64,000 nt of DNA from NCBI RefSeq assembly GCF_001543895.1, contig NZ_JYIJ01000017.1, positions 558,001 to 622,000 on the forward strand, read 5' to 3'. Below, piece by piece: positions 13,678-51,473 of this stretch; within the stretch, counting starts at the first letter, position 1; each line of letters begins with the position of its first letter. Made by a program: the position numbers and the translations under genes. The notes beneath the pieces were generated by a model that was not told the DNA's origin, did not search any database, and saw nothing but the letters and a program-made list of their open reading frames with translations. Source of the DNA: Carbonactinospora thermoautotrophica. Its GTDB lineage: Bacteria; Actinomycetota; Actinomycetes; Streptomycetales; Carbonactinosporaceae.

Positions 13678-14889
13678 ATGGAGTTCACCCAGTCGGCCAA
13701 GCTCGCCAACGTCTGCTACGACATCCGCGGACCGGTGCTCAAAGAGGCCAAGCGCCTGGAGGAGGAGGGGCACCGCATCCTCAAGCTGAACATCGGTAAC
13801 CCGGCCCCGTTCGGCTTCGAGGCACCGGAGGAGATCCTGCAGGACGTGGTGCGCAACCTGCCCACCGCGCAGGGGTACTGCGACTCCAAGGGCCTGCTGC
13901 CGGCGCGCCGGGCGGTCGTGCAGTACTACCAGCAGAAGGGTGTGTCCGGGGTCGACATCGAGGACGTCTACCTGGGCAACGGGGTCTCCGAGCTGATCGT
14001 GATGGCCCTGCAGGCGCTGCTCGACGACGGGGACGAGGTGCTGATCCCGGCGCCCGACTACCCGCTGTGGACCGCCGCGGTGAGCCTGTCCGGCGGCACC
14101 CCGGTGCACTACCTGTGCGACGAGCGGTCCGACTGGTACCCCGACCTGGACGACCTCGCGGCGAAGATCACCGACCGGACCAAGGCGCTGGTCGTCATCA
14201 ACCCCAACAACCCGACCGGCGCGGTGTACCCGCGCGAGGTGCTGGAACGCATCGTCGAGCTGGCGCGCCAGCACGGCCTGGCGCTGTTCTCCGACGAGAT
14301 CTACGACAAGATCCTGTACGACGACGCCGAGCACACCTCCACCGCCGCGCTCGCGCCGGACGTGCTCTGCCTGACCTTCAACGGCCTGTCCAAGGCGTAC
14401 CGGGTGGCCGGCTTCCGGTCCGGGTGGCTGGTGGTCTCCGGGCCCAAGCAGCACGCCGCGAGCTACCTGGAGGGCCTGGACATCCTCGCCAGCATGCGGC
14501 TGTGCGCGAACGTGCCCGCGCAGCACGCCATCCAGTCCGCGCTGGGCGGCTACCAGAGCATCAACGACCTGGTCCTCCCCGGCGGCCGGCTCCGCGAGCA
14601 GCGCGACCGCGCCTGGGAGCTGCTCACCGAGATCCCCGGCGTCTCCTGCGTCAAGCCGAAGGGCGCCATCTACGCCTTCCCGCGGCTGGACCCGAAGGTG
14701 TACCCGATCCGCGACGACCAGCGGCTCGTCCTCGACCTGCTGGTCCAAGAGAAGCTGCTGCTCGTCCAGGGCACCGGCTTCAACTGGCCGCACCCGGACC
14801 ACCTGCGCGTCGTCACCCTTCCCCGGGTCGACGAACTGGAGGACGCGATCGGCCGGCTCGCCCGCTTCCTCACCGGCTACCGGCAGTAG
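13678..14889 (+). CDS. Class I aminotransferase, AlaA-like (glutamate-pyruvate)
   Basis: The PLP-dependent aminotransferase has 403 residues and probably makes alanine from pyruvate and glutamate. The ATG at 13678 begins MEFTQSAKLANVCYDIRGPV, matching the usual N-terminus, so the longer upstream open frame is ignored. Motifs are LNIGNPAPFGF, VINPNNPTGAVYP, SDEIYDKILYDD, and the PLP lysine in FNGLSKAYRVAGFRSGW. It converges on an ASCH gene across a 30-bp palindrome. Confidence 0.92.
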   Translation: MEFTQSAKLANVCYDIRGPVLKEAKRLEEEGHRILKLNIGNPAPFGFEAPEEILQDVVRNLPTAQGYCDSKGLLPARRAVVQYYQQKGVSGVDIEDVYLGNGVSELIVMALQALLDDGDEVLIPAPDYPLWTAAVSLSGGTPVHYLCDERSDWYPDLDDLAAKITDRTKALVVINPNNPTGAVYPREVLERIVELARQHGLALFSDEIYDKILYDDAEHTSTAALAPDVLCLTFNGLSKAYRVAGFRSGWLVVSGPKQHAASYLEGLDILASMRLCANVPAQHAIQSALGGYQSINDLVLPGGRLREQRDRAWELLTEIPGVSCVKPKGAIYAFPRLDPKVYPIRDDQRLVLDLLVQEKLLLVQGTGFNWPHPDHLRVVTLPRVDELEDAIGRLARFLTGYRQ

Positions 14890-14946
14890 CCGTCACCCAC
14901 GCGGCTCGTCAGGCGGCTGTGGGGAGCGCCCCGGGTGGGGATCGAG

Positions 14947-14976
14947 TGTGTGTCGTCACACGTGTGACGACACACA
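14947..14976. promoter_or_regulatory. 30-bp palindrome, diverged form of the cassette palindrome
   Basis: Arms 14947-14961 and 14962-14976 are exact complements. The core TGTCGTCACAC is the same as in the 48-bp palindromes of R1-R3, but the outer bases differ and the rest of the cassette is missing. It lies between two convergent genes and may act as a two-way terminator here. Confidence 0.65.
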
Positions 14977-15011
14977 GGCGACGCCCCGGGTCCCGACCGG
15001 CCGCCGGCCGG

Positions 15012-15348
15012 TCACACCCGCTCCACCTCGATGGCGAGCACGCCCAGGGCCTCCTTCTCCGGCGGGTAGATCCGGCGGATGGCGGCCAGCAGCTCCGCGC
15101 GGTCCTCCGTCGCGCCGATCGCCCGGGGGGTCGAGCATCTCCTCGAACGAGCCGTACTCGCCGACCCGCCTCACCCGGGTCAGGCAGTGCTCGTCCCCGG
15201 TCCGGAACCGGATCAGCCACCCCGGCCGGATCCGGCGCATGTTCGGGTACCCGACCCGCACCTCCACGGTCTTGCGCCCCGAGGCGATCAGGTCGAAGTA
15301 CTCCTTGTACAGCCACATGTCCCGGGTCACCGGCTCGGTCTCGCCCAT
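15012..15348 (-). pseudogene. ASCH-domain gene with a +1 frameshift at a C6 run
   Basis: The start overlaps the upstream XRE gene by 22 bp. The first frame reads MGETEPVTRDMWLYKEYFDL, then GRKTVEVRVGYPNMRRIRPG, then FEEMLD. After a run of six C residues (minus strand, near 15120-15130) the ASCH sequence continues one base out of frame as AIGATEDRAELLAAIRRIYP and ends in AIEVERV. Five C residues would join both halves into a ~111-residue ASCH protein, an RNA-binding fold. It is either a pseudogene or a homopolymer sequencing error. Confidence 0.65.
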
Positions 15349-16760
15349 CGGTCCTCCGGCTCACTCCCCGGTCGCAGCGCTGCCCGCTTCACCAGCGCGA
15401 CGTACCGCTCGTGGAAGTCGCGGACCTCCGGCAGTCCGTGGTGACGCCCGCGCAGTACCGCGTCCAGCTCACCCGCCCGGACGCGGACCGCGTCGACCAG
15501 GCGCGGCGACATCAGGGCCGCCAGACCGGTCTGGGCGGCGCCGTCCGGAGCGCCGAGCCGGGCCAGGGCGAGACTGAGGTCCAGTCGGGCGATCGCCTCC
15601 CGGGTGGCGGAACGCCGAGGGGCCTGCTCGTACACGGCGATAGCTTCTTCGGCATGCCGGAGCGCGTCTCGCGGCCGGTCCAGCCACAGGTATGCCGAGG
15701 CGGCGTACGACGACAGCCGCACCGCGTCCGCGCTGAACAACGGGAACCCGTGCCCGGGCAACTGGTCGAGCGTGTGCTCGGCCCGCCGCCGCGCGTCCTC
15801 GAACTCCTCCCGCCGCCCCAGCCTGGCGTGTGCCCGGGCGACCTGGCCGAGCAGCCGCACCTGTGCCGCCGTGCCCCTGGGCGCGTACCGCGCCCCACGC
15901 GCCGCCGCGTCCAGCGCGTCCTCCGGCCGGCCGTCGTAGAGGGCGACCGTGGCCCGCACGTCCATCGCCCAGGCGCACAGCTCCAGGTGCTCTGCCTGCC
16001 AGGCGTGCTCCCAGGCATCCAGCGCGTACGCCTCGGCGGCTCTGGGATCCCCCAGGTCGTGGGCGAGCCAGGCCAGGATGACCGAGAGCCACCCGGCCTG
16101 CGCGTACAGTTCGCGTCCCTCACGCAGGGTGTGCCGCCCGTCGATCAGCTCGGCCACCCGTCGCCGGTACCAGCGCACTTGCGGCCACACGTCGGCCGGT
16201 CGGGTCGCCGCGTACGACCCGCTGAACCGGTGGATCACCAGTTCCAGGTGCTCCAGGACGCCGGACCCCAGCTCAGACGCTCCCGCCCGCCGGGTGAACT
16301 CCAGCGCCTCGGCGGCGGCCTCGCCCAGGACGCTTCCGAGCGCGCCCACGGCGTCGAGGGCGTCCTGGCGGGGCTCGGGGGCGGCCATCGCCAGCGCGCC
16401 GGCCAGGAACTCGCGTCGCTGCACGGGGTCCTCCAGATCGCGCGTTGAATCCACGGTAAACGCGCCGGCCGGCGATGGCGATGATGTTGGCGATGATGTT
16501 CCCCTACGAGTGCTGCGCGGCGGATGGGGCCGAAAACCCAGCGCAGTGCACGGCATGCCGGTGACCGCCTCCAGCGCCCGCCGGTACCGGCCCTGCGGCC
16601 ACTGCACCTCACCGGCCTCCCACTTCGCGACCAGGCGCACATCACACCGCAACTCGTCGCCGGCCGCGTCCCCGGCCCGGTTGATCGCGGCGGCGAACTC
16701 CCCCTGCCCCAGGTTCAACGACTCGCGCACACCCCGCAGGACGTCGTTCGGCTCTGGCAT
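15327..16760 (-). CDS. XRE-family regulator with TPR-like domain
   Basis: The protein has 477 residues from the ATG at 16760 (MPEPNDVLRGVRESLNLGQG); the frame is open further upstream without a better start. The helix-turn-helix is RESLNLGQGEFAAAINRAG, followed by DVRLVAKWEAGEVQWPQGRY, a Ser/Pro-rich linker, a DPVQRREFLAGALAMAAPEP segment, and about 300 residues of helical repeats. It overlaps the ASCH gene by 22 bp and is probably cotranscribed with it. The relation to the other XRE/TPR genes is one of architecture, not near identity. Confidence 0.82.
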   Translation of the reverse strand: MPEPNDVLRGVRESLNLGQGEFAAAINRAGDAAGDELRCDVRLVAKWEAGEVQWPQGRYRRALEAVTGMPCTALGFRPHPPRSTRRGTSSPTSSPSPAGAFTVDSTRDLEDPVQRREFLAGALAMAAPEPRQDALDAVGALGSVLGEAAAEALEFTRRAGASELGSGVLEHLELVIHRFSGSYAATRPADVWPQVRWYRRRVAELIDGRHTLREGRELYAQAGWLSVILAWLAHDLGDPRAAEAYALDAWEHAWQAEHLELCAWAMDVRATVALYDGRPEDALDAAARGARYAPRGTAAQVRLLGQVARAHARLGRREEFEDARRRAEHTLDQLPGHGFPLFSADAVRLSSYAASAYLWLDRPRDALRHAEEAIAVYEQAPRRSATREAIARLDLSLALARLGAPDGAAQTGLAALMSPRLVDAVRVRAGELDAVLRGRHHGLPEVRDFHERYVALVKRAALRPGSEPEDRWARPSR

Positions 16761-38028: not shown

Positions 38029-38910
38029 GTGGACGTACAGGACGTCATGCGACAGGACCTGCGCCAGCTGTTGGCCCGCTGGCGCGACCAGGTCGTGGAC
38101 CGCTGGGTCGAGTCCCAGCGCCAGCACTTGGAACCGTACGGGGTCTCGGTCGAGGACCTGCGACGCGAGGCCTGGGAACTGCTGAAGCACCTGAACGACG
38201 GACTCGATGGGCAGACCCCGATCGACCGCCTCGCGTTCGACTACGACCCGCTGCGCCGCATGCTGAGCGAGCTGTCCCTGAACCGGGCGCGGCTCGGGGC
38301 GACTCCCACGGAGACCGCAGTGGGGATCCTGGCGTTGAAGCACGCGTTCATCGAGGTCCTGCGCGAGCAGGCCGGCGCGGACCCCGACGCGGTCCTGAAC
38401 ACCGTGCTGAGCATGAACCGGCTGGTGGACTCGGCCGCGCTGCTCACCTTCGAGACCTACGTCAAGGGCCGCCAGGAGATCATCAACCGGCAGAACCAGC
38501 AACTGCTGGAACTGTCCACCCCCGTGGTGCAGGTGTGGCGCCACGTGCTGGCGGTGCCGCTCATCGGCACGTTGGACAGCACGCGCACCCAGGTGGTGAT
38601 GGAAAGCCTCCTGCAGGCCATCCAGGATCGGGAGGCCCGGGTGGCGATCATCGACATCACGGGCGTGCCGACCGTGGACACCCTGGTCGCCCAGCACCTG
38701 TTGCAGACCGTCACCGCGACCCGGCTGATGGGCGCCGAGTGCGTGATCAGCGGGATCCGGCCGCAGACCGCCCAGACGATCGTGCAGCTGGGGATCGACC
38801 TGTCTGACATCGTCACCAGGGCGACGCTGGCCGACGCGCTCGCGACCGCGATCGAGATGACCGGGGATAAGGTGGGGGTGAGTGTCCCGACCCGCCCGGA
38901 GCCGGCCTGA
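38029..38910 (+). CDS. rsbR: RsbR-type stressosome protein with STAS domain
   Basis: The 293 residues have an N-terminal helical, globin-like sensor region (LLARWRDQVVDRWVESQRQH, DRLAFDYDPLRRMLSELSLN) and a C-terminal STAS domain (VPLIGTLDSTRTQVVMESLL, VAIIDITGVPTVDTLVAQHL). The STAS Thr/Asp-Thr-Leu segment is the expected RsbT phosphorylation area. It is the first gene of a five-gene operon; its stop overlaps the rsbS start (TGATG). RsbR and RsbS form the large stressosome that sequesters RsbT. Confidence 0.9.
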   Translation: MDVQDVMRQDLRQLLARWRDQVVDRWVESQRQHLEPYGVSVEDLRREAWELLKHLNDGLDGQTPIDRLAFDYDPLRRMLSELSLNRARLGATPTETAVGILALKHAFIEVLREQAGADPDAVLNTVLSMNRLVDSAALLTFETYVKGRQEIINRQNQQLLELSTPVVQVWRHVLAVPLIGTLDSTRTQVVMESLLQAIQDREARVAIIDITGVPTVDTLVAQHLLQTVTATRLMGAECVISGIRPQTAQTIVQLGIDLSDIVTRATLADALATAIEMTGDKVGVSVPTRPEPA

Positions 38911-39323
38911 TGAGCAAGCCGTCATCCATCCCGATCCTGCGGCTGGGCGACGTGCTCCTGGCGAGTGTGCAACAGGAACTCGACGACTCCACCGCGCTCG
39001 CGTTCGCTGACGAACTCACCCAGCGGATCGCGGAGACCACGGCGCGCGGGGTGATGCTGGACATCAGCAAGCTGGAGGTCGTCGACTCGTTCATCGCCAG
39101 GGTGCTGGTCGAGATCACCGCGATGGCTCGGCTGCTGGGGGCACGGGTGGTGGTCGCGGGCATGCGGCCGGCGGTCGCGATGACGCTCGTGGAGCTGGGG
39201 CTCGCCCTCCCCGGCGTGGAGACCGCGCTGACGGTGGAGCGGGCGTTGGAGAAGCTGGCGGGGGACTCGCCGCTGCGGCCGAACAGGCCACGGGACAAGG
39301 GGCCTGGTAGTGCGAAACACTGA
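38910..39323 (+). CDS. rsbS: RsbS-type STAS protein
   Basis: This 137-residue single STAS domain includes IPILRLGDVLLASVQQELDD and VMLDISKLEVVDSFIARVLV; the Ser in VVDSF is the likely phosphorylation site by RsbT. The length fits the family, with a short charged C-terminal tail. The overlap with rsbR upstream (1 bp) and rsbT downstream (14 bp) shows tight coupling and a fixed protein ratio. Confidence 0.92.
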   Translation: MSKPSSIPILRLGDVLLASVQQELDDSTALAFADELTQRIAETTARGVMLDISKLEVVDSFIARVLVEITAMARLLGARVVVAGMRPAVAMTLVELGLALPGVETALTVERALEKLAGDSPLRPNRPRDKGPGSAKH

Positions 39324-39747
39324 AGCTGGCGCTGAGCTGGTGGTTGAGCGGACAGCCACAGTGCAGATCCGCTCCGCGGAGGACATGGTCCTCGCGCGTC
39401 ACCAGGTCCGGTCGGCGGCGATCGCGGCCGGCTTCTCACTGGTCGAACAGACCAAGATCGTGACCGCGGCGAGCGAACTGGTACGCAACTGCCTGGTCCA
39501 CGGCGGAGGCGGCTCGATCACCATCGAGCAGGTGTCCCGCGACGCCCGCCGGGGCGTCCGGCTCACCGTCTGCGACTCCGGGCCGGGGATCGCCGACATC
39601 AACATGGCGCTGCAGGACGGCTACTCGACCGGGCGGGGGCTCGGCTACGGGCTGGGCGGGGCGAAGCGGCTGGTGGACGAGTTCGCGATCGAATCCGAGG
39701 TGGGCCGCGGCACCGTGGTCACCGCGACCCGTTGGAGCACCCAGTGA
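39310..39747 (+). CDS. rsbT: RsbT-type serine kinase
   Basis: This 145-residue GHKL kinase phosphorylates RsbR/RsbS and then activates a phosphatase partner. N-box ASELVRNCLVHGGGGS, G1 LTVCDSGPGIADINMA and G2 STGRGLGYGLGGAKRLVDEF are all present, so the ATP site is intact. It starts at GTG 39310 within the rsbS 3' end. Confidence 0.93.
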   Translation: MRNTEAGAELVVERTATVQIRSAEDMVLARHQVRSAAIAAGFSLVEQTKIVTAASELVRNCLVHGGGGSITIEQVSRDARRGVRLTVCDSGPGIADINMALQDGYSTGRGLGYGLGGAKRLVDEFAIESEVGRGTVVTATRWSTQ

Positions 39748-40790
39748 ACCCGATCACCCGCCGCGTCGTCATCGACGACGTGAGCGCGGTGCACGAGGCG
39801 CGCCGAGCCGCCGCCCAACTGGCGGCGGATCTGGGATTCTGCGAGGTACGCCGGGAGCAGGTGGCGATCGCCGCTTCAGAGCTGGCCAGCAACGCGCACA
39901 AGCACACCCGGGGGGGCGACGTGTACCTCCAGCCCGCGCCCCACCTGCCCGGACCCGTGCTGGAGATGATCGCCGCCGACCACGGCCCCGGCGTCGCGGC
40001 GTTCGAGCAGTGCCTCGTCGACGGCTACAGCACCACCGGCACCCTCGGCGCGGGCCTGGGCGCGGTACAGCGCCTCGCCAGCTACTGCGCGGCGTACTCC
40101 TGCCCCGAACGGGGCACGGTGGTGCTCGCGCGCTTCACCGCCCAACTCGACCCGCCGATGTGGACCCCACCGGTCCGGCGGCTGGACGTCGGCGCGCTCG
40201 CCCTCCCCGCCCCGGGCGAGACCATCAGCGGGGACGCGTACACGATCGCCGAGGACCCGGACGGTGTCACCGTGGCCGTGGCCGACGGCCTGGGCCACGG
40301 CCCGGACGCGGCCGAGGCGGCGCGAACGGTGATCGACTCGTTGTCAGAACTCACCGGGCTCACCCCCGCCGAGCAGTTGCGGGAACTGCACGCCCGGCTG
40401 CGGAGCACGCGCGGCGCCGCGGCCGCGATCGCCCGCATCGACCGGGTTTCGCGCACCGTCCGCATCGCCGCCGTCGGCAACGTCACCTGTGCCGTCTGGG
40501 AGCCCGACCAGGGCCTGACCCGGCTCGCCGGGCGTCCGGGCGCCCTGGGCATCCGGTTGTCGAAGCCCTTCGAGCAGGTCGTACCGCTGACGCCGAACAC
40601 CCGACTGGTGCTCCACAGCGACGGGCTGCACAACCGCTGGGACCTCACCGCGTATCCCGGGCTGTTCACCGGCCACCCGGCCGCGCTGACCGCCGCCACC
40701 CTGTTCCGCGACTGCGAGCGGGGCCGGGACGACGCCACCGTCGTCGTCCTCGGCGCACTCGACGCGCCGCTCCACGGAGACTTCGGATAG
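39744..40790 (+). CDS. Fused GHKL ATPase and PP2C-type phosphatase (RsbX-like)
   Basis: The 348 residues start at GTG 39744, overlapping the rsbT stop (GTGA). The first ~135 residues are a second RsbT-like ATPase (IAASELASNAHKHTRGGDVY, MIAADHGPGVAAFEQ, TTGTLGAGLGAVQRLA). The rest is a small SpoIIE/RsbX phosphatase (GETISGDAYTIAEDPDGVTV, VADGLGHGPDAAEAART, RLVLHSDGLHNRWDLTA, GRDDATVVVLG). Such proteins reset stressosome phosphorylation. The fusion of both activities in one chain is common in actinobacteria. Confidence 0.87.
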   Translation: MNPITRRVVIDDVSAVHEARRAAAQLAADLGFCEVRREQVAIAASELASNAHKHTRGGDVYLQPAPHLPGPVLEMIAADHGPGVAAFEQCLVDGYSTTGTLGAGLGAVQRLASYCAAYSCPERGTVVLARFTAQLDPPMWTPPVRRLDVGALALPAPGETISGDAYTIAEDPDGVTVAVADGLGHGPDAAEAARTVIDSLSELTGLTPAEQLRELHARLRSTRGAAAAIARIDRVSRTVRIAAVGNVTCAVWEPDQGLTRLAGRPGALGIRLSKPFEQVVPLTPNTRLVLHSDGLHNRWDLTAYPGLFTGHPAALTAATLFRDCERGRDDATVVVLGALDAPLHGDFG

Positions 40791-40799
40791 GAATACACC

Positions 40800-42086
40800 G
40801 TGCACAGGGTGAACGGTCTACACGTCCGGGCGTACGCGGACGTGGCCGAACTGCGCCGGCGGCTGCGTGCGCTCGCCGGCTACCTGGGCATCGCTCCCGC
40901 GGAGCGCGCCCGCCTGGTCCTCGCGGTCACCGACGCGGTGCGAGCCGCCTTACAGTCCGGGCAGTGGCTCAGCGTCAGCGTCTCGCTGGCCGACCACGCG
41001 CGGCCCCCAGCCTTGCACGTCGAGCTGACCGGCGGCGGCGAATGGCCGGCCACCGCGCCCGGCAGCCTGCCCATGCCGACCCAGCGCACCCCGGACGGCC
41101 TGGTCATCAGCTTGCCGCTGGCGACCCTGCCCGCAGGCATCGACCTGACCGCCGCGTGGAAGGAGACCCCACCGCCGGAGCATGCCGCGCTCGAGGAGGA
41201 GCTGCGCGCCGCCCTCGACCTGGCCGAACGGCGCCGGGAGCAGCTCGTCCAGGTCACCGAGGAGCTGGAACAGACGAACCGGGGCACCGTGGCCTTGTAC
41301 GTCGAACTGGAGCAGCGCGACGAGCAGCTACGCCAGGCCCACCGGAAGGTGTTCCGGGAGCTGGAGGACGCCCTCCGCCCGCCACCGCCGGAGGTGACCG
41401 GGGTGGAGCTCGCCGTGCACTACCTGCCGGCCCAGGAGGACGCCCCCACCGGGGGCGACCTGTACGACTGGATCGTGCTGCCCGACGGCCAGCTGCACGT
41501 GACCGTGGTCGACGTCATGGGCCACGGCGTCACCAGCACGCGCGACGCGCTGAACGTGACCCACGCCGTGCGCATCCTCGCCCTGGAAGGGCACGGGCTG
41601 GACACGTTGATCGCGCGCGCCAACGCGCTGCTGGAAACGCAGAACCCCGAGTTGTTCGCGACCGTCGTAGTGGTGCGCCTGGACCCGAAGACGGGCACGG
41701 TCCACATCGCCAACGGCGGCCACCCTCCCGTGCTGCACCTGCTGCAGGACAGGGAAGCCCGCTACTTGGAGGCCAAAGGGCGGCCGCTCGGCTACCCCGC
41801 GGCAGGCAGCGACGAGGTCCGCACCGAGCGGCTGGCCCCCGGCGACGTCCTCCTGCTGTACACCGACGGGCTCGTCGAGAGCACCCGGGACATCCTGGTC
41901 GGCCTGGAACGGCTCGCGAAGACGGCCCGCCAGTCCGCGGCCCTCGCCACAGCCGAACTGCCGGGAGCGATCGTCCGCGCCATCCTCGGTGAGCACGGCC
42001 ACCGCGACGACACCCTCGCCCTCGCCCTGCGGTGGACCCCGGACCGGCCGGCCGGGGACGCGGACTCCGGCGCGCAGGGGTCGTAG
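40800..42086 (+). CDS. rsbU: RsbU-type PP2C phosphatase
   Basis: The 428 residues begin with a degenerate ATPase-like domain (ERARLVLAVTDAVRAALQSG). A coiled coil follows (residues ~125-185, EELRAALDLAERRREQLVQV), then a SpoIIE-type phosphatase with PTGGDLYDWIVLPDGQ, VVDVMGHGVTSTRDALN, TVHIANGGHPPVLHLL, LLLYTDGLVESTRD and RDDTLALALRW. All metal-binding Asp residues are present. It probably dephosphorylates an anti-anti-sigma factor to release a stress sigma factor. Its last ~415 bp are duplicated at 47437-47849. Confidence 0.92.
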   Translation: MHRVNGLHVRAYADVAELRRRLRALAGYLGIAPAERARLVLAVTDAVRAALQSGQWLSVSVSLADHARPPALHVELTGGGEWPATAPGSLPMPTQRTPDGLVISLPLATLPAGIDLTAAWKETPPPEHAALEEELRAALDLAERRREQLVQVTEELEQTNRGTVALYVELEQRDEQLRQAHRKVFRELEDALRPPPPEVTGVELAVHYLPAQEDAPTGGDLYDWIVLPDGQLHVTVVDVMGHGVTSTRDALNVTHAVRILALEGHGLDTLIARANALLETQNPELFATVVVVRLDPKTGTVHIANGGHPPVLHLLQDREARYLEAKGRPLGYPAAGSDEVRTERLAPGDVLLLYTDGLVESTRDILVGLERLAKTARQSAALATAELPGAIVRAILGEHGHRDDTLALALRWTPDRPAGDADSGAQGS

Positions 42087-42185
42087 CGCCGTACGGCCGG
42101 CGTGCTACGAGCCGTACCCGGTCGGGGTGAAGAAGCGGCGCGGGCTGCTCGTGGAGTGATCAGTCGCTGCGACCGGGAAGCCCGT

Positions 42186-43022
42186 TCAGAGCAATGCGGC
42201 AAAAGTTGGTGAGCGCAGCCAGCCGAAGTCACCGTCGAGGCCCGCGGCGAGGATGCGGTTCACGTTGACGGCGCCGACCCAGTCCGCCCGGCCGGTGGCG
42301 CGGAGGGCGACGAGCGCGGCGGACAGGCTGTGCCGCAGGTTGAGCACGCTGATCCGTTCGCGCGCTTCCGTTCGGCCGGTCTCCAGCCAGGTCCGGTGCA
42401 GCGCGGTCATGGAGGTACCGCGTAGCTCCGGCTGGGTGACGTCCAAGCCCAGGTCGGTGCAGACGTCGACCAGGCGGCGCGAGGCGCAGCCGAGGATGTG
42501 CCCGGCGTCGTACCGGGTGTCGACCACACGGCGGGTCGCGAGCTCGGCATCACGGCGGGCCCGCCATGCGTGGCGGGCTGTTTCGATCGCCTCGGGCGGG
42601 GCGGCGGCTGCGTTCGCCAGCACGGCGAGATCGCTGGAGAGCTGGTGCCCGATGATCTGGTCGGCGGCGTCGAGGCAGGCGCGCAGCTCAGCGTCGGCGA
42701 GCCGGATCAGCTCCTCGGTCTCGTCGGTGTTCTCCACGTACACGCTGGTGTACCGGAAGGGCAGTTCGGTGACGTCGACCGGGCCGTGGGTGGGGACGGC
42801 GAGGTACACGGCCGAGTAGCAGAACGGCCGGTTGCCGTTCTTCACCCGGTAGTTCTTGGTCCACTCCACATCGACGCTGGCGAGCAGCCGCGACCCTTGC
42901 GGCCGGCGAGGCGGGCGCGCGGGCCCGCCGAGAGTGCTGGTGACGATCACCCGAGTGCTCTCCTGGATGGTGACAGGGGCGTGCGTCGGCCCGGCCGCGT
43001 GGCTCACGGCCGGGCCGATCAT
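42186..43022 (-). CDS. DEDD exonuclease-fold-like protein, partner of the radical SAM gene
   Basis: The protein has 278 residues. GSRLLASVDVEWTKNYRVKN gives the D-x-E of exonuclease motif I (D51, E53), and QIIGHQLSSDLAVLANAAAA gives the H...D of motif II. The third motif expected near the C-terminus (H-x4-D or Y-x3-D) is not evident: the segment is NLRHSLSAALVALR. The fold therefore looks like a DnaQ-type 3'-5' exonuclease with a degenerate site. It is a distant paralog of the adjacent 267-residue protein. Both follow the radical SAM gene on the same strand and probably belong to one operon. Confidence 0.55.
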   Translation of the reverse strand: MIGPAVSHAAGPTHAPVTIQESTRVIVTSTLGGPARPPRRPQGSRLLASVDVEWTKNYRVKNGNRPFCYSAVYLAVPTHGPVDVTELPFRYTSVYVENTDETEELIRLADAELRACLDAADQIIGHQLSSDLAVLANAAAAPPEAIETARHAWRARRDAELATRRVVDTRYDAGHILGCASRRLVDVCTDLGLDVTQPELRGTSMTALHRTWLETGRTEARERISVLNLRHSLSAALVALRATGRADWVGAVNVNRILAAGLDGDFGWLRSPTFAALL

Positions 43023-43037
43023 GGTACGAGCTTGACG

Positions 43038-43841
43038 CTATCTGCATCCGGACAGCGACGCGGCGTAGTCGAAGGTGGTGAACCTGTCCCAGGTTTCGCG
43101 GGCCAGCAGTGGCGCGACCGGCAGCGGCTCGGCCCACGCGTACTTGCCGAGCGCCGCAGCGGCGACCAGCGCAACCGCGAGGGTGCGTTCCAGACTCCCG
43201 GCCAGCAACAACTCCCCCGAGCGGCGGTCTCCCTCATCCGCCAGCGACTCGTACAGGCTGCGCACGCTGGCCACGTTCAGCGGCCCAATCGGGAGAGATT
43301 CGATCTCGACGTTGTGCGTCGCGCAGGCGTCGGCGAGGCCCCGGCAGGGGATCGGGCCGACGTCACAGCAGGTGTCGAACAGGCAGGCGATCCCGCGTTG
43401 CTGCTGGCGGCGGTCTTCCCACTCGGCGGTGAGGGCTGTCACCCCGGGCACGCCCACGCCGACGGTGTCGGCGAGAGCGTGCAAGCCGGCCAGGTCGTCG
43501 GTGAAGGAGTGACCGGCCAGCACCGCGGCGTGGCGGCGGGCCTGCACCAACACCCGGTCGACCAGGGCGACGAGCTGGGCAGCCTCCTCGTCGTGCTCGA
43601 TCACCACGGCATGGAAACCGAAGCCGATCGTGTCGACGTCGACGGGCAGGGTCCGGGTGCGATGCACCCGCAGATACACCGCAGAGGCGCACACCGGCAC
43701 GGCGCGCTCACCGTCATCGACCCATTCCAGTCTGACGGCGGTGAGTATCTGGGCCGGGCGGCCGAACGGGCGTTGCTCGGCACCGTAGGGGGTGCTCGGC
43801 CAGCTCAGGTTGGTGATCTCACGCATCGGGGCCTCCGGCAC
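43038..43841 (-). CDS. Second exonuclease-fold-like protein, more degenerate
   Basis: The protein has up to 267 residues. The start could be 43841 or the internal ATG at 43826; both overlap the radical SAM stop. It parallels the 278-residue neighbour: AVRLEWVDDGERAVPVCASA for the first strand (the motif I Asp is replaced), AAVLAGHSFTDDLAGLHALA for motif II, and CLFDTCCDVGPIPCRGLADA, which is Cys-rich. Nuclease activity is doubtful. A scaffolding, peptide-binding or nucleotide-binding role with the radical SAM protein is possible. Confidence 0.5.
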   Translation of the reverse strand: MPEAPMREITNLSWPSTPYGAEQRPFGRPAQILTAVRLEWVDDGERAVPVCASAVYLRVHRTRTLPVDVDTIGFGFHAVVIEHDEEAAQLVALVDRVLVQARRHAAVLAGHSFTDDLAGLHALADTVGVGVPGVTALTAEWEDRRQQQRGIACLFDTCCDVGPIPCRGLADACATHNVEIESLPIGPLNVASVRSLYESLADEGDRRSGELLLAGSLERTLAVALVAAAALGKYAWAEPLPVAPLLARETWDRFTTFDYAASLSGCR

Positions 43842-44808
43842 GGGCCACGGTGCGGATGCTGCGGCCGAGGTACTTGGCGAAGTGGTTGCGCTTGAACCGG
43901 TACCGCTTCCAGATCTCGGTCACCGGTTCCTCCAGCAGGTTGCCCAGCGGCTCGAACAGGTCGGGGGCGTCGTAGACGGGCCACGCGTTCGCCTTGCCCG
44001 TGGGCTCGACGACGATCATGTGTCCCTCGGTATGGGGCGTCCACGTCGTCATGCGCAGCGCGGGCCGCCAGTCATGCACCGCGCGCAGCTCGGCCAACCG
44101 ATTGAAAGTGTCTGCGGCCTCGACCTGGGTGATGAACTCGTTCTCCTCCAGGTCCAGGGCGTTGCCCTTGCGCAGTGGCAGGATCAGCTTGAGCTTGCCG
44201 GCGCCGAGCACGTCGGCGATCTGGTACGTGAACGGCAGGGCGTGCAATGTGGACCGGTAGACGACCGCGGACAGGGAAATCGGCAGCCCGGCGTCCAGGA
44301 ACGCGCGCACCCCGGCCATCACCTGGTCGTAGTCGCCGCGCACCCGGTTGGTCGTCGACCGCGGCCCCTCCAGCCCGACGTTGACGAACGCCACCTTGCC
44401 GGCGAGGTTCTTCGCATGCTCCAGCCCCCGCGTGGCGTTGGTCGGCACACCGATGATGAAGTCGGCGTACATGTCGACGATCTCACCGAAGTCCCGGCGC
44501 AGCAGCGGCTCGCCTCCGGACAGGAACACCCGCTGCACACCGGTGAGGTTCGCGCGCATCGTGTCGAGCTGGTCCAACGTGGGGTCGGGGAGCTGCAACG
44601 TTTCTGAGCAGAACGAGCAGTCGAAGTTGCACCGCTTGGTGACCTGGAGAATCACCGAGAGCGGTACGGTGGCCGACTCGGCGAGTTCGTCTAGGTTGAC
44701 GTCCTCGGTGAGGGTGAAGTGGTGGCCTTCGGTGAACCGCACCGGTCCCGTGGCCTGCCGCATCGACGGCTTCGGGGTCGGCATCGAGGGCATGCCCAGT
44801 AAAGTCAT
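43819..44808 (-). CDS. Radical SAM protein of a candidate peptide-modification locus
   Basis: The protein has 329 residues. The ATG at 44808 has GGAGGT 9 nt upstream. The iron-sulfur motif is CNFDCSFC (C60, C64, C67), a standard CxxxCxxC, followed by the SAM-binding GGEPL segment (RVFLSGGEPLLRRDFGEIVD). A long C-terminus (PLRKGNALDLEENEFITQVE, PLGNLLEEPVTEIWKRYRFK) resembles the tail of peptide-acting radical SAM enzymes but lacks the extra Cys cluster of SPASM proteins. No precursor ORF was found close by. The shared cassette R2 lies 73 bp upstream. Confidence 0.85.
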   Translation of the reverse strand: MTLLGMPSMPTPKPSMRQATGPVRFTEGHHFTLTEDVNLDELAESATVPLSVILQVTKRCNFDCSFCSETLQLPDPTLDQLDTMRANLTGVQRVFLSGGEPLLRRDFGEIVDMYADFIIGVPTNATRGLEHAKNLAGKVAFVNVGLEGPRSTTNRVRGDYDQVMAGVRAFLDAGLPISLSAVVYRSTLHALPFTYQIADVLGAGKLKLILPLRKGNALDLEENEFITQVEAADTFNRLAELRAVHDWRPALRMTTWTPHTEGHMIVVEPTGKANAWPVYDAPDLFEPLGNLLEEPVTEIWKRYRFKRNHFAKYLGRSIRTVARAGGPDA

Positions 44809-44975: not shown

Positions 44976-44987
44976 GGCTTCGGCCGC

Positions 44988-45035
44988 GTCGAGTGTGCGT
45001 GTCGTCACACGCGTGTGACGACACGCACACTCGAC
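44988..45035. promoter_or_regulatory. Perfect 48-bp palindrome in cassette R2
   Basis: Sequence and length are identical to those at 6936-6983 and 54249-54296; arms are 44988-45011 and 45012-45035. No change has accumulated although flanking bases differ, which suggests function or gene conversion. Confidence 0.85.
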
Positions 45036-45036
45036 G

Positions 45037-45149: not shown

Positions 45150-45257
45150 CTAGCGGGGCAGCCAGCCCAGGGCGTACAACAGGCCGGGCAACGCCAGCAG
45201 GGCCAGGCCGAGGATGAGGATCAGCGTGACCTCGGTCTCACGGCTGAGCCGGCGCAT
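45150..45257 (-). CDS. 35-residue single-helix membrane peptide, copy 1
   Basis: MRRLSRETEVTLILILGLAL continues to LLALPGLLYALGWLPR. A basic start is followed by one hydrophobic helix, so it is a small inner-membrane peptide. It is 35 residues long, like the copy at 54407-54514, with only a handful of differences. Its start lies inside the 3' end of the zinc-ribbon ORF, so the genes are coupled. Function unknown. Confidence 0.6.
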   Translation of the reverse strand: MRRLSRETEVTLILILGLALLALPGLLYALGWLPR

Positions 45258-45399
45258 CGGGTGCCTTCTTCCCGTACAGGAACGCGATCTCGCTCGGGGT
45301 CAGCGGCAGCGAGCACGGGCCGCACGGGTTCCCGTTGACGGTGCCCGTACCGTGGCAGGTGGCGCACGCGGGGTCGACCACGGCGTGCAGCTCGCTCAC
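45238..45399 (-). CDS. Small zinc-ribbon-like protein, copy 1 (intact)
   Basis: The 53-residue product holds two CxxC pairs in VDPACATCHGTGTVNGNPCG followed by PC, like a shortened DnaJ-type zinc finger. The tail reads SLPLTPSEIAFLYGKKAPDA. GTG 45399 overlaps the stop of the 83-residue ORF (GTGA). The copy at 54.5 kb is split in two frames. Confidence 0.6.
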   Translation of the reverse strand: MSELHAVVDPACATCHGTGTVNGNPCGPCSLPLTPSEIAFLYGKKAPDAPAQP

Positions 45400-45647
45400 C
45401 CCTGCCACCCCCACTGCCGGGCGTGAGCCTCCACGCTGGAGCGGATGTTCGGGTGGGTGTCGAGCAGGCTCACCACCAGACCGGCGAGCAGGTTCGTCCA
45501 CTCCCTGTAGGTCATCAGGTCGGACAGGGTCGGGTTCTGGAGTTGCGCCCCGGTGCGGATGCCATGCAGGTATTCCTCCAGCGTGGGCGGGGCCGGCGGG
45601 AAGTGGGTGACTTGGCCGTTGGGGCTCTGCTGCGGGGGAATGGTCAC
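45396..45647 (-). CDS. Conserved 83-residue protein, copy 1
   Basis: The product MTIPPQQSPNGQVTHFPPAP, TLEEYLHGIRTGAQLQNPTL, ... HARQWGWQG is not a family I recognise. It has a Pro-rich start and then helices. About four fifths of the residues are the same in the copy at 54655-54906, which argues that it is a real protein. GTG 45647 has GGGAGGAG upstream and overlaps the stop of a tiny leader ORF. Confidence 0.7.
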   Translation of the reverse strand: MTIPPQQSPNGQVTHFPPAPPTLEEYLHGIRTGAQLQNPTLSDLMTYREWTNLLAGLVVSLLDTHPNIRSSVEAHARQWGWQG

Positions 45648-45727
45648 CGCTCCTCCCCTCGGCGCGGGGCGAGGAGCTTGACCGGTGTCATGTCCTGGGC
45701 CTCTGGGTGGGTCTCATTCGTGTTCAT
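45644..45727 (-). CDS. Tiny first ORF of the small-gene operon, copy 1
   Basis: A 27-codon ORF (MNTNETHPEAQDMTPVKLLA, then PRRGEER) ends in a GTGA overlap with the 83-residue gene. An internal ATG with GAGG ahead of it may be the true start. The ending parallels the 42-codon ORF at 54903-55031 (PAQRRGGDR). It may be a translated leader or a small partner protein. Confidence 0.35.
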   Translation of the reverse strand: MNTNETHPEAQDMTPVKLLAPRRGEER

Positions 45728-46589
45728 GGCCACAGGAGACCCGAACGCCAGCCGGTGACTCTAGGCTGAGAGTCGCTCACTCACAGCTCACTCACACTCA
45801 CAGCTGGACCGGGGGAGACAACGTGACCGCGGCCGAGGAACGAGCGCCCGCGGCGCCGGGCGAAGTGTTCATCGCGGAGCTGAAGCGTTGGCGTGACGTG
45901 CGCGGAATGTCGCAGTCCGCGCTGGCGAAGACGGTCGGCTACACGCCTTCGTACGTGTCGAAGGTCGAAAGCGGCCAGCAGCGTCCCTCGGTCGCGTTCG
46001 CCGAGCAGGCCGACCGCGTTCTCCGTGCCGGAGGGGCGCTGCGTCGGGCGTACCACGAGTACGAGACGCAGCTCCGCCGTGGAACCGCCGACCAGGAGCC
46101 CCAGACTGCCGTACCGGCGGGTGAGCCGGTCGAGAGCGCGACCGGCAGCCTGCTGGTCGAGCACGACGACGCCGAGCTGTACTACGCGCGTGTACCGGGC
46201 CACGCAGCGGCGGAAGCTGTACAACGCGACCGACGCCCCGGTGACGCGGTACCTGATCCGGATCTCGGTGGACCGCTACCCGGGCAACCCGGAACGTTCG
46301 AACCGGCTCTACCGGGAGCACCCGCTGACCTGGGAGGAGATCAACCTCCAGGCGCGCTGCGGCAACGACCCGATGCGCTGGAAGGTCCAGCACGACCGGG
46401 ACGCGTTCAAGGAAGTCTGGCTGCTGTTCGAGAACGAGTACGGCCGGTTCCCCCTGTATCCGGGGGAAAGCACGTGGATCGAGTACAGCTACACAGTCGG
46501 AGACGACAAGTGGGGCAACTGGTTCCAGCGCGCGGTGCGGCTCCCGACCAAGCGCCTGAGCGTGCGGCTGGACTTCCCGGCTGAGCTGG
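45724..46589 (+). repeat. 866-bp duplicated segment, copy 1
   Basis: This segment is nearly identical to 50531-51396. It covers the divergent promoter region and the first ~255 codons of the HTH-deformylase gene. The identity ends abruptly at 46589/51396. Confidence 0.85.
45775..45805 (+). promoter_or_regulatory. Direct-repeat operator-like site upstream of the HTH-deformylase gene
   Basis: ACTCACAGCT occurs at 45779-45788 and 45796-45805, and GCTCACTCAC at 45775-45784 with CTCACTCAC at 45787-45795. It lies 18-48 bp upstream of GTG 45823 and is repeated at 50582-50612 with one base changed. A binding site for the HTH protein itself is the simplest reading. Confidence 0.5.
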
Positions 46590-47332
46590 ACCCGGTGGTG
46601 TGGGGCATGGAGACCACGATGACCGCCGAGGCGTTCCCGTTCCGGACCGCGATCAGCCAGGACGAACGGGACGGCCGGCGCGTCTTCTCCTGGTCCACGG
46701 AGAATCCGCCGCTGCACGCGCGCTACCGACTGGAATGGAAGTTCCGCGCACGCTCCGAGGAGAAGGACGCCGGCCCGGTGACGACGACAGCGAGCGAGAC
46801 CATGCGGTCCCTGGGGGTCGTCCAGGAGGGCGATCCGATCCTGCGCCAGGTCGCGCGTCCCTTCGACCTGCCGGTCGAGGCCGAGGACGCCCGGCGGGTG
46901 GTCGCCGAGCTGCACTCGGCGATGGAGCGGGTGGCGAACGCGCACGTGTTCGTCAAGGGCATGGGCATAGCCGCCCCGCAGATCGGCATCGATCGAGCGG
47001 CGGCCATTGTCCGCTTCCCGACCGGCGAGATCATCACCCTGCTGAACCCGCGCGTTATCGAGGAATCGGACGAGACCGATGAGAAGTACGAGGGCTGCCT
47101 GAGCTTCTTCGACGTCCGCGGCATGGTCCCCCGCCCGCTCGCCATCCAGGTCGAGCACCAGGACATCGACGGCCAGCGCCGCATCACGATCTTCGAACGC
47201 GGCGACGCTCGCCTCGTCGCGCACGAGATCGACCACCTTGAGGGGAAGCTGTACACGGACCGCATGCGGCCAGGGGTGAAGCCCATCCCCGTCTCCGAAT
47301 ACCGAGGGACCGGGCAGACGTGGCAGTACTAG
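45823..47332 (+). CDS. HTH - central domain - peptide deformylase fusion, interrupted by a +1 shift
   Basis: Frame 1 from GTG 45823 (ribosome site GGGGGAG) encodes an XRE domain (AELKRWRDVRGMSQSALAKT, VGYTPSYVSKVESGQQRPSV) and runs to VEHDDAELYYA. From 46187 the sequence continues one base over: RVYRATQRRKLYNATDAPVT, then a central domain of ~200 residues, then a class-III-like peptide deformylase with GMGIAAPQIG, EGCLSF and HEIDHLEG, all metal and catalytic residues intact. From memory, actinobacteria encode this fusion in one frame. The shift near 46186 is also present in the second copy. The gene may be broken, split, or use frameshifting. Deformylase removes the formyl group of nascent peptides. 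Confidence 0.62.
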
Positions 47333-47423: not shown

Positions 47424-47849
47424 TTGGACGCGCTGGTGGTGCGCCTGGACCCCGTGACGGGCACGGTCCACATCGCCAACGGCGGCCACCCGCCCGTGCT
47501 GCACCTGCACGACGGCGGCACCAGCTACCTGGAGGCCAAGGGCCGGCCGCTCGGCTACCCCGCGGCGGGCAGCGACGAGGTCCGCACCGAGCAGCTGGCA
47601 CCCGGCGACGTCCTCCTCCTGTACACCGACGGGCTCATCGAGAGCACCCGCGACATCCTGGCCGGCCTGGAACGGCTCGCGAAGACGGCCCGCGAGTCCG
47701 CGACCCTCGCCACCGCTGAGCTTCCGGGGGCGATCGTCCGCGCGATCCTCGGCGACCACGGCCACCACGACGACACCCTCGCCCTCGCCCTGCGGTGGAC
47801 CCCGGACCAGCCGGCCGGGGACGCGGACTCCGACGCACAGGGGTCGTAG
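47424..47849 (+). pseudogene. Duplicated 3' fragment of rsbU
   Basis: From 47437 the DNA matches the end of rsbU (41671-42086) with ~90% identity: TGTVHIANGGHPPVLHLHDG, LLLYTDGLIESTRDILAGL. It lacks the first two thirds of the phosphatase domain and has no proper start. Similarity continues past the stop for about 80 bp. The fragment and rsbU thus flank the 5.3-kb segment 42.1-47.4 kb as direct repeats. Confidence 0.8.
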
Positions 47850-47976
47850 CGCCGACCGGGTACGACTCGCGTGCTACGAGGCGTACCGGCCGGCGTGAAG
47901 AAACGGCGGGGACTGCTCGTGCAGGTCCTCGATGAGCTGCGCGGTGCGCGTCCGCGACTTGTCCAGCCGTGGCCGG

Positions 47977-50530: not shown

Positions 50531-51396
50531 TCATGGCCACAGGAGACCCGAGCGTCAGCCGGTGACTCTAGGCTGAGAGTCGCTCACTCACAGCTCACTC
50601 ACATTCACAGCTGGACCGGGGGAGACAACGTGACCGCGGCCGGGGAACGAGTGCCCGCGGTGCCGGGCGAAGTGTTCATCGCGGAGCTGAAGCGTTGGCG
50701 TGACGTGCGCGGAATGTCGCAGTCCGCGCTGGCGAAGACGGTCGGCTACACGCCTTCGTACGTGTCGAAGGTCGAAAGCGGTCAGCAGCGTCCCTCGGTG
50801 GCGTTCGCCGAGCAGGCCGACCGCGTTCTCCGTGCCGGAGGGGCGCTGCGTCGGGCGTACCACGAGTACGAGACGCAGCTCCGCCGTGGAACCGCCGACC
50901 AGGAGCCCCAGACTGCCGTACCGGCGGGTGAGCCGGTCGAGAGCGCGACCGGCAGCCTGCTGGTCGAGCACGACGACGCCGAGCTGTACTACGCGCGTGT
51001 ACCGGGCCACGCAGCGGCGGAAGCTGTACAACGCGACCGACGCCCCGGTGACGCGGTACCTGATCCGGATCTCGGTGGACCGCTACCCGGGCAACCCGGA
51101 ACGTTCGAACCGGCTCTACCGGGAGCACCCGCTGACCTGGGAGGAGATCAACCTCCAGGCGCGCTGCGGCGACGACCCGATGCGCTGGAAGGTCCAGCAC
51201 GACCGGGACGCGTTCAAGGAAGTCTGGCTGCTGTTCGAGAACGAGTACGGCCGGTTCCCCCTGTATCCGGGGGAAAGCACGTGGATCGAGTACAGCTACA
51301 CAGTCGGGGACGCCAAGTGGGGCAACTGGTTCCAGCGCGCGGTGCGGCTCCCGACCAAGCGCCTGAGCGTGCGGCTGGGCTTCCCAGCCGAGCTAG
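50531..51396 (+). repeat. 866-bp duplicated segment, copy 2
   Basis: This is the counterpart of 45724-46589. It includes the operator-like direct repeats (50582-50612) and the first part of the HTH gene. Few substitutions separate the copies, so duplication was recent or conversion occurs. Confidence 0.85.
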
Positions 51397-51473
51397 ATGT
51401 TCTGTCCTGTGAGGTTGGGTACGCGGTTCTGGGACCATCCCGCAGCCGGGCCGGGTGCCGCCTGATCTGCTGA
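50630..51473 (+). pseudogene. Truncated copy of the HTH-deformylase gene
   Basis: It starts at GTG 50630 with the same ribosome site. The HTH, the +1 shift after VEHDDAELYYA and the central domain are kept. The match ends at 51396, and the frame closes at 51473 in unrelated sequence, so the whole deformylase domain is missing. The HTH part alone could still bind DNA. It lies directly upstream of the GNAT and cyclase genes. Confidence 0.7.

What the first reader, a model, noticed from the sequence alone, without database searches (positions are those of the whole stretch)
42186..44808. Radical SAM gene coupled to two paralogous exonuclease-fold-like genes
Both partners keep pieces of DEDD exonuclease motifs (DVEW and GHQLSSDL in one, GHSFTDDL in the other) but lack a full active site. 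Overlap of the genes argues for a complex. No precursor ORF lies between the cassette and the radical SAM gene, so the substrate may be a protein, a nucleotide or a distant peptide.
Basis: partly seen in the sequence, partly recalled or inferred. Interest (0 to 1): 0.65.

Follow-up and report, generated by a model that had tools for sequence, protein, structure and literature searches.

The report
Mobile nucleotide-modifying radical-SAM gene cassette
The three genes are the core of a rare, mobile gene cassette, shared by actinobacteria and Streptomyces phages, that probably makes or handles an altered nucleotide, perhaps as a weapon or shield in phage conflicts; its chemistry is untested.

Summary
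In detail: three minus-strand genes at 42186-44808 encode a radical SAM (rSAM) enzyme and two homologous DnaQ-fold proteins (31% identity). The model of one (exoA) is confidently DnaQ-like (pLDDT 93; Z 15.6 to polymerase exonuclease domains). It keeps three of four catalytic acids; the fourth appears to be an invariant His. The other (exoB) has lost the site.

In relatives the triplet is followed by a thymidylate-kinase-like kinase and a NUDIX hydrolase (11 of 19 genome loci, 5 of 5 viral contigs, phage Gilgamesh). Variants: one DnaQ-fold gene instead of two (3 loci), exoB without exoA (7 loci), MazG with the set (3 loci). The window copy lacks kinase and NUDIX. The rSAM model fits nucleotide-bound viperin best (Z 24.0, against 22.9 for SuiB) and lacks the extra cysteines of peptide and MoaA enzymes, but fails the viperin sequence cut-off (28 against 180 bits).

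Best reading: a mobile, viperin-like nucleotide-modification pathway, with the DnaQ-fold proteins as mostly non-cutting nucleotide or strand-end binders. Substrate, product and defence role are inferred. My searches found no paper on it.

The parts
43819..44808 (-). Radical SAM enzyme (329 aa), CxxxCxxC, no further conserved Cys; viperin-like in predicted structure
   Evidence: Pfam PF04055 2.2e-16; alignment of 17; AlphaFold model pLDDT 87; VIA Z 24.0 to viperin with CTP; Cys count
43038..43826 (-). exoB: degenerate DnaQ-fold paralogue, N-terminal TNLxW motif, catalytic acids lost (ORF also open from GTG 43841)
   Evidence: paralogy to exoA; alignment; 8-nt overlap with rSAM gene
42186..42950 (-). 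exoA: DnaQ/DEDD-fold protein keeping D27, E29, D107 with invariant H207; likely start GTG 42950 (an ATG at 43022 is also open)
   Evidence: alignment of 18; model pLDDT 93; fold matches; start by homologues
42986..43018 (-). 14-bp RNA hairpin between exoB and exoA; hairpins of unrelated sequence sit at the same place in most relatives
   Evidence: z of -2 or lower in 11 of 16 gaps, absent in L009 and L014
41670..42156 (.). left copy of a 487-bp direct repeat (3' end of a SpoIIE-type phosphatase gene) ending 30 bp from exoA
   Evidence: 89% to 47436-47924
47436..47924 (.). right copy of that repeat; the pair brackets the triplet and the deformylase ORF

Best explanation
The triplet is the core of a mobile nucleotide-modification cassette that works like a viperin/CMPK2-type module. 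Proposed course: the rSAM enzyme uses SAM to abstract a hydrogen from the sugar or base of a nucleotide and makes an altered nucleotide; the thymidylate-kinase-like kinase raises the monophosphate (of substrate or product) towards the triphosphate; the NUDIX (or MazG) enzyme cuts the triphosphate back to monophosphate, as a control or self-protection step; the DnaQ-fold partner binds the nucleotide, or the 3' end of a strand carrying it, and delivers, senses or clears it. One ancestral DnaQ-fold gene was duplicated: exoB kept the N-terminal motif, exoA kept the acidic pocket. Shown: gene content, conservation, DnaQ fold of exoA (by prediction), two paralogous clades, phage carriage. Inferred: substrate class, the order of steps, the partner's role, and the benefit (most likely phage-phage or phage-host conflict, since the cassette is rare and patchy and sits in temperate phages next to regulators and before the portal gene). 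The window copy has lost, or never had, kinase and NUDIX and may borrow host enzymes or be decaying.
For: Five-gene cassette in 11 of 19 genome loci, 5 of 5 viral contigs and phage Gilgamesh, and in two more genomes. Kinase with P-loop and Thymidylate_kin/AAA_28 matches; NUDIX with intact box. MazG, another NTP pyrophosphohydrolase family, is joined to the rSAM in L017, lies beside the set in L016 and stands in a divergent rSAM operon with a clear thymidylate kinase in L105 (2.4e-20). rSAM model closest to CTP- and UTP-bound viperin (Z 24.0, about 255 residues, 2.5 A); only the three cluster cysteines conserved in 17 of 17. AbmM and BlsE, which I recall as nucleoside-acting rSAM enzymes, are also among the matches. 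exoA fold. exoB-only loci: in 7 of 7 genomes the only exoA-profile hit is exoB itself. Trees: exoA and exoB clades each 100/100, single genes with exoA; phage copies nested among Streptomyces. Rarity: 1 true hit (the window's own genome) of 396, 4 of 391. Gilgamesh genes 39-43 lie between HTH/HATPase genes and the portal gene, with the same neighbours in several viral contigs.
Against: By sequence the rSAM is not a viperin (28 bits against cut-off 180); its best solved sequence matches are SkfB and PqqE, and its best NCBIfam scores are MoaA and PqqE. SuiB and SkfB follow viperin closely in Z (22.9, 22.2). The viperin model rings weakly in nearly every genome (190 of 198, none over cut-off), so weak viperin scores mean nothing. 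The kinase has only weak similarity to solved enzymes (21 bits to thymidylate kinase). The window genome has no kinase of this family (best E 0.026). Defence role: among 72 neighbours of 8 loci only one locus (L006) showed a named defence system (Qat); the two detailed scans of 20 neighbour proteins gave otherwise generic matches.
Confidence: 0.5

Rival explanations
1. The rSAM acts on the nucleic acid polymer: the DnaQ-fold protein holds a 3' end (or a base-flipping HhH-GPD protein holds a base) and the rSAM alters that nucleotide in place; the kinase acts on the altered base, as in phage thymidine hypermodification.
For: Partner swaps between two nucleic-acid-handling folds: DnaQ in the main family, HhH-GPD in the divergent L105 operon. 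P-loop kinase and phage carriage.
Against: No thymidylate-synthase-like gene among the 156 annotated Gilgamesh features, though most are unnamed; NUDIX and MazG act on free nucleotides; cassette also in non-phage chromosomes.
Confidence: 0.17
2. Nucleotide-pool or strand-end repair: the cassette removes or reverses a damaged nucleotide rather than making a new one.
For: NUDIX best matches are MutT-like; MazG, exonuclease-like and glycosylase-like partners are all sanitation folds.
Against: Rare, patchy distribution is unlike repair; partner active sites decay.
Confidence: 0.13
3. Biosynthesis of a secreted nucleoside natural product.
For: AbmM and BlsE among the rSAM matches; Streptomyces hosts.
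Against: No conserved transporter, ligase or tailoring gene beside the cassette; present in phages and in a 0.8-Mb genome.
Confidence: 0.08
4. RiPP-type peptide or protein modification.
For: SkfB, SuiB and PqqE are near neighbours by sequence or fold.
Against: No auxiliary-cluster cysteines; no conserved small ORF; constant partners are nucleotide enzymes.
Confidence: 0.06

Closest known systems
Viperin / SAND (RSAD2) and prokaryotic viperins
   Same: rSAM core plus C-terminal extension without extra clusters; best structural match, nucleotide-bound; neighbouring thymidylate-kinase-like kinase, as I recall for vertebrate CMPK2 and for some pVips (PADLOC names a pVip model 'associated with kinases')
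   Different: Far below the viperin sequence cut-off; adds NUDIX or MazG and DnaQ-fold partners
DEDD (DnaQ-like) exonucleases: RNase T, family B polymerase exonuclease domains
   Same: fold, motif I DxE and motif II D
   Different: fourth metal-binding acid replaced by His in exoA; acids lost in exoB; stand-alone with an rSAM
SPASM/twitch rSAM peptide maturases (SkfB, SuiB) and PqqE, MoaA
   Same: rSAM core; best sequence matches
   Different: no C-terminal cysteines; no precursor
Phage thymidine hypermodification (recalled)
   Same: P-loop kinase and, in some phages, an rSAM
   Different: no thymidylate-synthase-like gene annotated in Gilgamesh

Membership tests
Radical SAM superfamily | CxxxCxxC and PF04055 over cut-off | tested here: met
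   60.9 bits against 29.5; C60, C64, C67 in 17 of 17
Viperin/SAND | NCBIfam NF038283 score over 180 | tested here: not met
   28.1 bits
Viperin/SAND | overall fold without auxiliary cluster | tested here: met
   model: Z 24.0 over 255 residues; no other conserved Cys. SuiB is close behind at 22.9
Viperin/SAND | makes a ddh-nucleotide from a ribonucleoside triphosphate | not testable with these tools
   needs enzyme assay
SPASM peptide maturase | C-terminal auxiliary-cluster cysteines | tested here: not met
   best further Cys column 3 of 17
SPASM peptide maturase | conserved precursor peptide gene | tested here: not met
   window small ORFs have no tblastn match in 19 loci; no other conserved neighbour (ORFs under 45 aa not examined)
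MoaA | family score over cut-off | tested here: not met
   55 bits against 325 (TIGR02668), 47.5 against 284 (TIGR02666)
DEDD exonuclease | DnaQ-like fold | tested here: met
   exoA only; exoB by homology, not modelled
DEDD exonuclease | four acidic metal ligands | tested here: not met
   exoA: three, the fourth position reads His (27 of 27), position inferred from alignment ends; exoB: D27 absent in 28 of 28
NUDIX hydrolase (relatives' fifth gene) | intact Nudix box | tested here: met
   G39, E45, R53, E54, E57, E58 invariant in 10 of 10; not in the window
Known anti-phage defence system | match to a PADLOC system | tested here: not met
   only generic pVip core matches, 39.5 bits, and one NUDIX candidate family

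The most novel reading that the evidence does not exclude
A new kind of system in which a viperin-like rSAM enzyme is aimed by a disabled exonuclease: the DnaQ-fold subunit binds the 3' end of a nascent phage strand (or the nucleotide leaving it) and the rSAM converts that nucleotide into a terminator or mark, with kinase and NUDIX setting the pool of the product. Temperate Streptomyces phages carry it to exclude rivals.
Probability: 0.15. Interest if true: 0.88.

Novelty: new variant of a known kind. Interest (0 to 1): 0.62.

Why it matters
It joins rSAM chemistry, nucleotide salvage enzymes and a decayed proofreading fold in one mobile cassette. If the product is a modified nucleotide it would add to the few natural chain terminators known and show a phage-borne counterpart of the viperin/CMPK2 pair. 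The small, well-defined gene set and natural deletion variants (exoA only, exoB only, no kinase) make the role of each part directly testable.

Tried and rejected
Peptide substrate: rejected as unlikely (no extra Cys, no conserved small ORF). Heterodimer as a strict requirement: rejected, because L015-L017 have one gene of the exoA type and seven genomes have exoB alone. Active nuclease as the core function: unlikely for the same reason. Calling the rSAM a viperin: rejected by sequence score, although the structure is viperin-like. PADLOC pVip match: discounted after the control. Phage thymidine hypermodification: kept as a rival only. Searching PDB sequences with the exoA profile gave nothing; plasmids gave nothing; Rfam found nothing in the window. 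A residue-by-residue comparison of the rSAM with viperin's CTP ligands was not done: the papers are not held and I did not type viperin into any tool. I first guessed that Qat genes lay beside L007 or L004 (notebook); one search showed not, one search placed QatA in L006 at 13797-15617; QatC (2.8e-62) I assign to L006:11741-13012 by elimination, not by its own scan. Gene calls for neighbours are a rough codon-GC method of mine. The tree outgroup L105 is very long-branched, so rooting of the rSAM tree is open. No paper on the cassette turned up in searches (0 papers each); one search listed 2 papers, of which I saw the listing and the start of the abstract only; two searches likewise (listings). 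Searches (viperin ligands) were empty. Of PMC9642334 I saw passages, of PMC9415739 outline and abstract.

Full report
Observation. On the minus strand an rSAM gene (44808-43819) overlaps by 8 nt a second gene (ATG 43826 to 43038); a third (to 42186) follows. The second and third are homologous: 31% identity, E 1e-15, hhalign probability 99.4 over 236 columns. Homologues of the third begin where the window has GTG 42950, so the exoB-exoA gap is 87 nt and carries a 14-bp hairpin. Hairpins of different sequence lie in that gap in most relatives: folding energy at least two standard deviations below shuffles in 11 of 16 gaps, clearly not in L009 and L014. Two of those 16 stretches (L005, L009) had no mapped exoB stop and were cut by length.

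Fold of exoA. An AlphaFold model from 18 sequences has mean pLDDT 93. Foldseek's best PDB matches are polymerase exonuclease domains and RNase T (probability 0.95-0.99, but E 2.7e-3 or weaker); VIA-align gives Z 15.6, rmsd 3.0 over 183 residues with DNA polymerase alpha, and about 14 with archaeal family B polymerases. Viral structures agree. In one search the archaeal polymerase rows align model 20-222 to 134-330, so D27 and E29 fall on residues 141 and 143 and H207 on 315, if no gaps intervene; I recall these as the catalytic positions D141, E143 and D315. D27, E29, D107, D144, D148 and H207 are invariant in 27 of 27 exoA-type sequences; in 28 exoB sequences D27 is never present, E29 only in the window copy, D107 in 22, H207 in 2. 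exoB was not modelled.

The wider cassette. One scan of GTDB genomes gave 19 loci. By tblastn, rSAM, exoB, exoA, kinase and NUDIX stand together in 11 of the 19 (L003, L004, L006, L007, L010-L014, L018, L019). L021 has rSAM and exoB, with exoA cut by the contig end. L009 has rSAM, exoA, NUDIX and a weak exoB-like stretch (5.8e-6). L008 lacks rSAM, L005 lacks rSAM and exoB, L020 holds only an exoA fragment, and L015, L016 and L017 have rSAM with a single DnaQ-fold gene. All 5 distinct viral contigs and Streptomyces phage Gilgamesh genes 39-43 have all five genes, as do two further genomes, G752 and G459. No gene outside the cassette is shared by most loci. In the window only rSAM, exoB and exoA are found, and no kinase of the family in its genome (best E 0.026).

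Variants that tell about the parts. A class-wide rSAM search gave 11 of 296 genomes including the window's own. Seven of these (L106-L112) have rSAM, exoB and kinase without exoA, and the only exoA-profile hit in each genome is the exoB gene itself; a NUDIX gene lies beside the kinase in six, and is split or displaced in L110. Two (L113, L114) hold rSAM fragments. One, L105, is a divergent rSAM (32-35% identity) in an operon MazG (weak Pfam match, 0.024), thymidylate kinase (2.4e-20), HhH-GPD-like protein (9.1e-5), rSAM. MazG is also fused to the rSAM of L017 and encoded beside the L016 set (47% to the L105 MazG). So an rSAM, a nucleotide kinase and an NTP pyrophosphohydrolase recur with a partner from a nucleic-acid-handling fold. 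G1004, a 0.8-Mb genome, has a lone exoA-type gene (136 bits) with no rSAM of the family (best 30 bits).

Evolution. In the tree of 55 DnaQ-fold rows, exoA types (27) and exoB types (28) are two clades, each 100/100; single genes group with exoA. The N-terminal [TS]N[LM]x(W/R) motif is in 29 of 29 exoB sequences and in 2 of 3 single genes; in the paired exoA set only L004 shows a form of it. This fits one duplication followed by division of roles: exoB kept the N-terminus, exoA the acidic pocket. Long-branched rows and the rSAM root are uncertain. Phage and prophage rSAMs nest within the Streptomyces clade. The family is rare: the window genome alone of 396 in the phylum sample (a second hit, G217, is a 36-residue match I discount), 4 of 391 in the order, 2 of 286 in the phylum of the L017 genome.

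What the rSAM resembles. The sequence matches many rSAM families weakly; the best NCBIfam scores are MoaA (55 bits, cut-off 325) and PqqE, with viperin at 28.1 (cut-off 180); the best PDB sequence hits are SkfB (3.7e-11), PqqE, AbmM and MoaA, with viperins from 2e-7. The predicted structure (pLDDT 87, low at residues 1-16 and lower at the cluster loop) is nearest to viperins, several holding CTP or UTP: Z 23.2-24.0, rmsd 2.5, 252-256 residues, then SuiB 22.9, SkfB 22.2, PqqE 19.9, BlsE 19.4, MoaA 18.6. By plain Foldseek E-value SkfB and PqqE come before viperin. Only the three cluster cysteines are conserved (17 of 17; next best 3 of 17), as in viperin and unlike SPASM or MoaA enzymes. R93, K205 and K207 are invariant; I recall basic residues at similar places binding the triphosphate in viperin, which I could not check.

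Context. In Gilgamesh the cassette lies between HTH and HATPase_c_2 genes and the portal gene, and neighbours of this block recur in the viral contigs and in several Streptomyces loci. Of 72 neighbours of eight chromosomal loci, four carry DUF5753, three HATPase_c_2, and some are transposases or a TrwC relaxase; one locus, L006, has a Qat defence ATPase 4 kb away. No defence family covers the cassette itself. In the window, a 487-bp direct repeat (89%) brackets the triplet plus a peptide-deformylase ORF, which suggests arrival or duplication by recombination.

Reading. I hold the nucleotide pathway at 0.5: gene content and the rSAM's architecture favour it, sequence scores neither help nor exclude, and no biochemistry was possible. 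That the DnaQ-fold partners mostly do not cut follows from the exoB-only loci and the lost or changed metal ligands; that they bind nucleotides or strand ends is inference from fold. The defence role is the least supported step (about one in three in my view). My ten literature searches include five aimed at the cassette, all empty; the library holds open-licence papers only.

Noticed in passing
window 41670-42156 and 47436-47924: 487-bp direct repeat, 89% identical, of the 3' part of a SpoIIE-type phosphatase gene; the 5.3 kb between holds the triplet, two small ORFs and a deformylase ORF.
   Followed up: partly
window 45724-46590 and 50531-51397: 867-bp direct repeat, 98% identical, at the start of an ORF that runs into a peptide deformylase domain in the first copy.
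   Followed up: partly
window 44987-45036: Perfect 50-bp palindrome without a loop, about 180 bp before the rSAM gene; it could be a terminator or an operator.
   Followed up: no
window 38029-42086, + strand: Stressosome-like run: RsbR-type STAS, STAS-like, HATPase-like, HATPase-SpoIIE and SpoIIE phosphatase genes, convergent with the triplet (the second and third read by eye only).
   Followed up: partly
window 45238-45647, - strand: Two small ORFs upstream of the rSAM gene, one with a CxxCxGxG-like stretch; neither is found in the 19 related loci.
   Followed up: partly
L105 6874-10780: Operon MazG, thymidylate kinase, HhH-GPD-like, divergent rSAM and an unnamed gene; a possible second type of the system.
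   Followed up: partly
L079 7755-8588: Lone exoA-type gene in a 0.8-Mb genome without the rSAM; an HhH-GPD gene lies 2.4 kb upstream.
   Followed up: partly
L006 11741-15617: Qat-type defence genes about 2 to 6 kb downstream of a five-gene cassette in Actinocorallia.
   Followed up: partly
L035 12418-13026 (Gilgamesh gene 38): Unnamed gene just before the rSAM gene, with homologues near the cassette in several Streptomyces loci and in L006; no Pfam match.
   Followed up: partly
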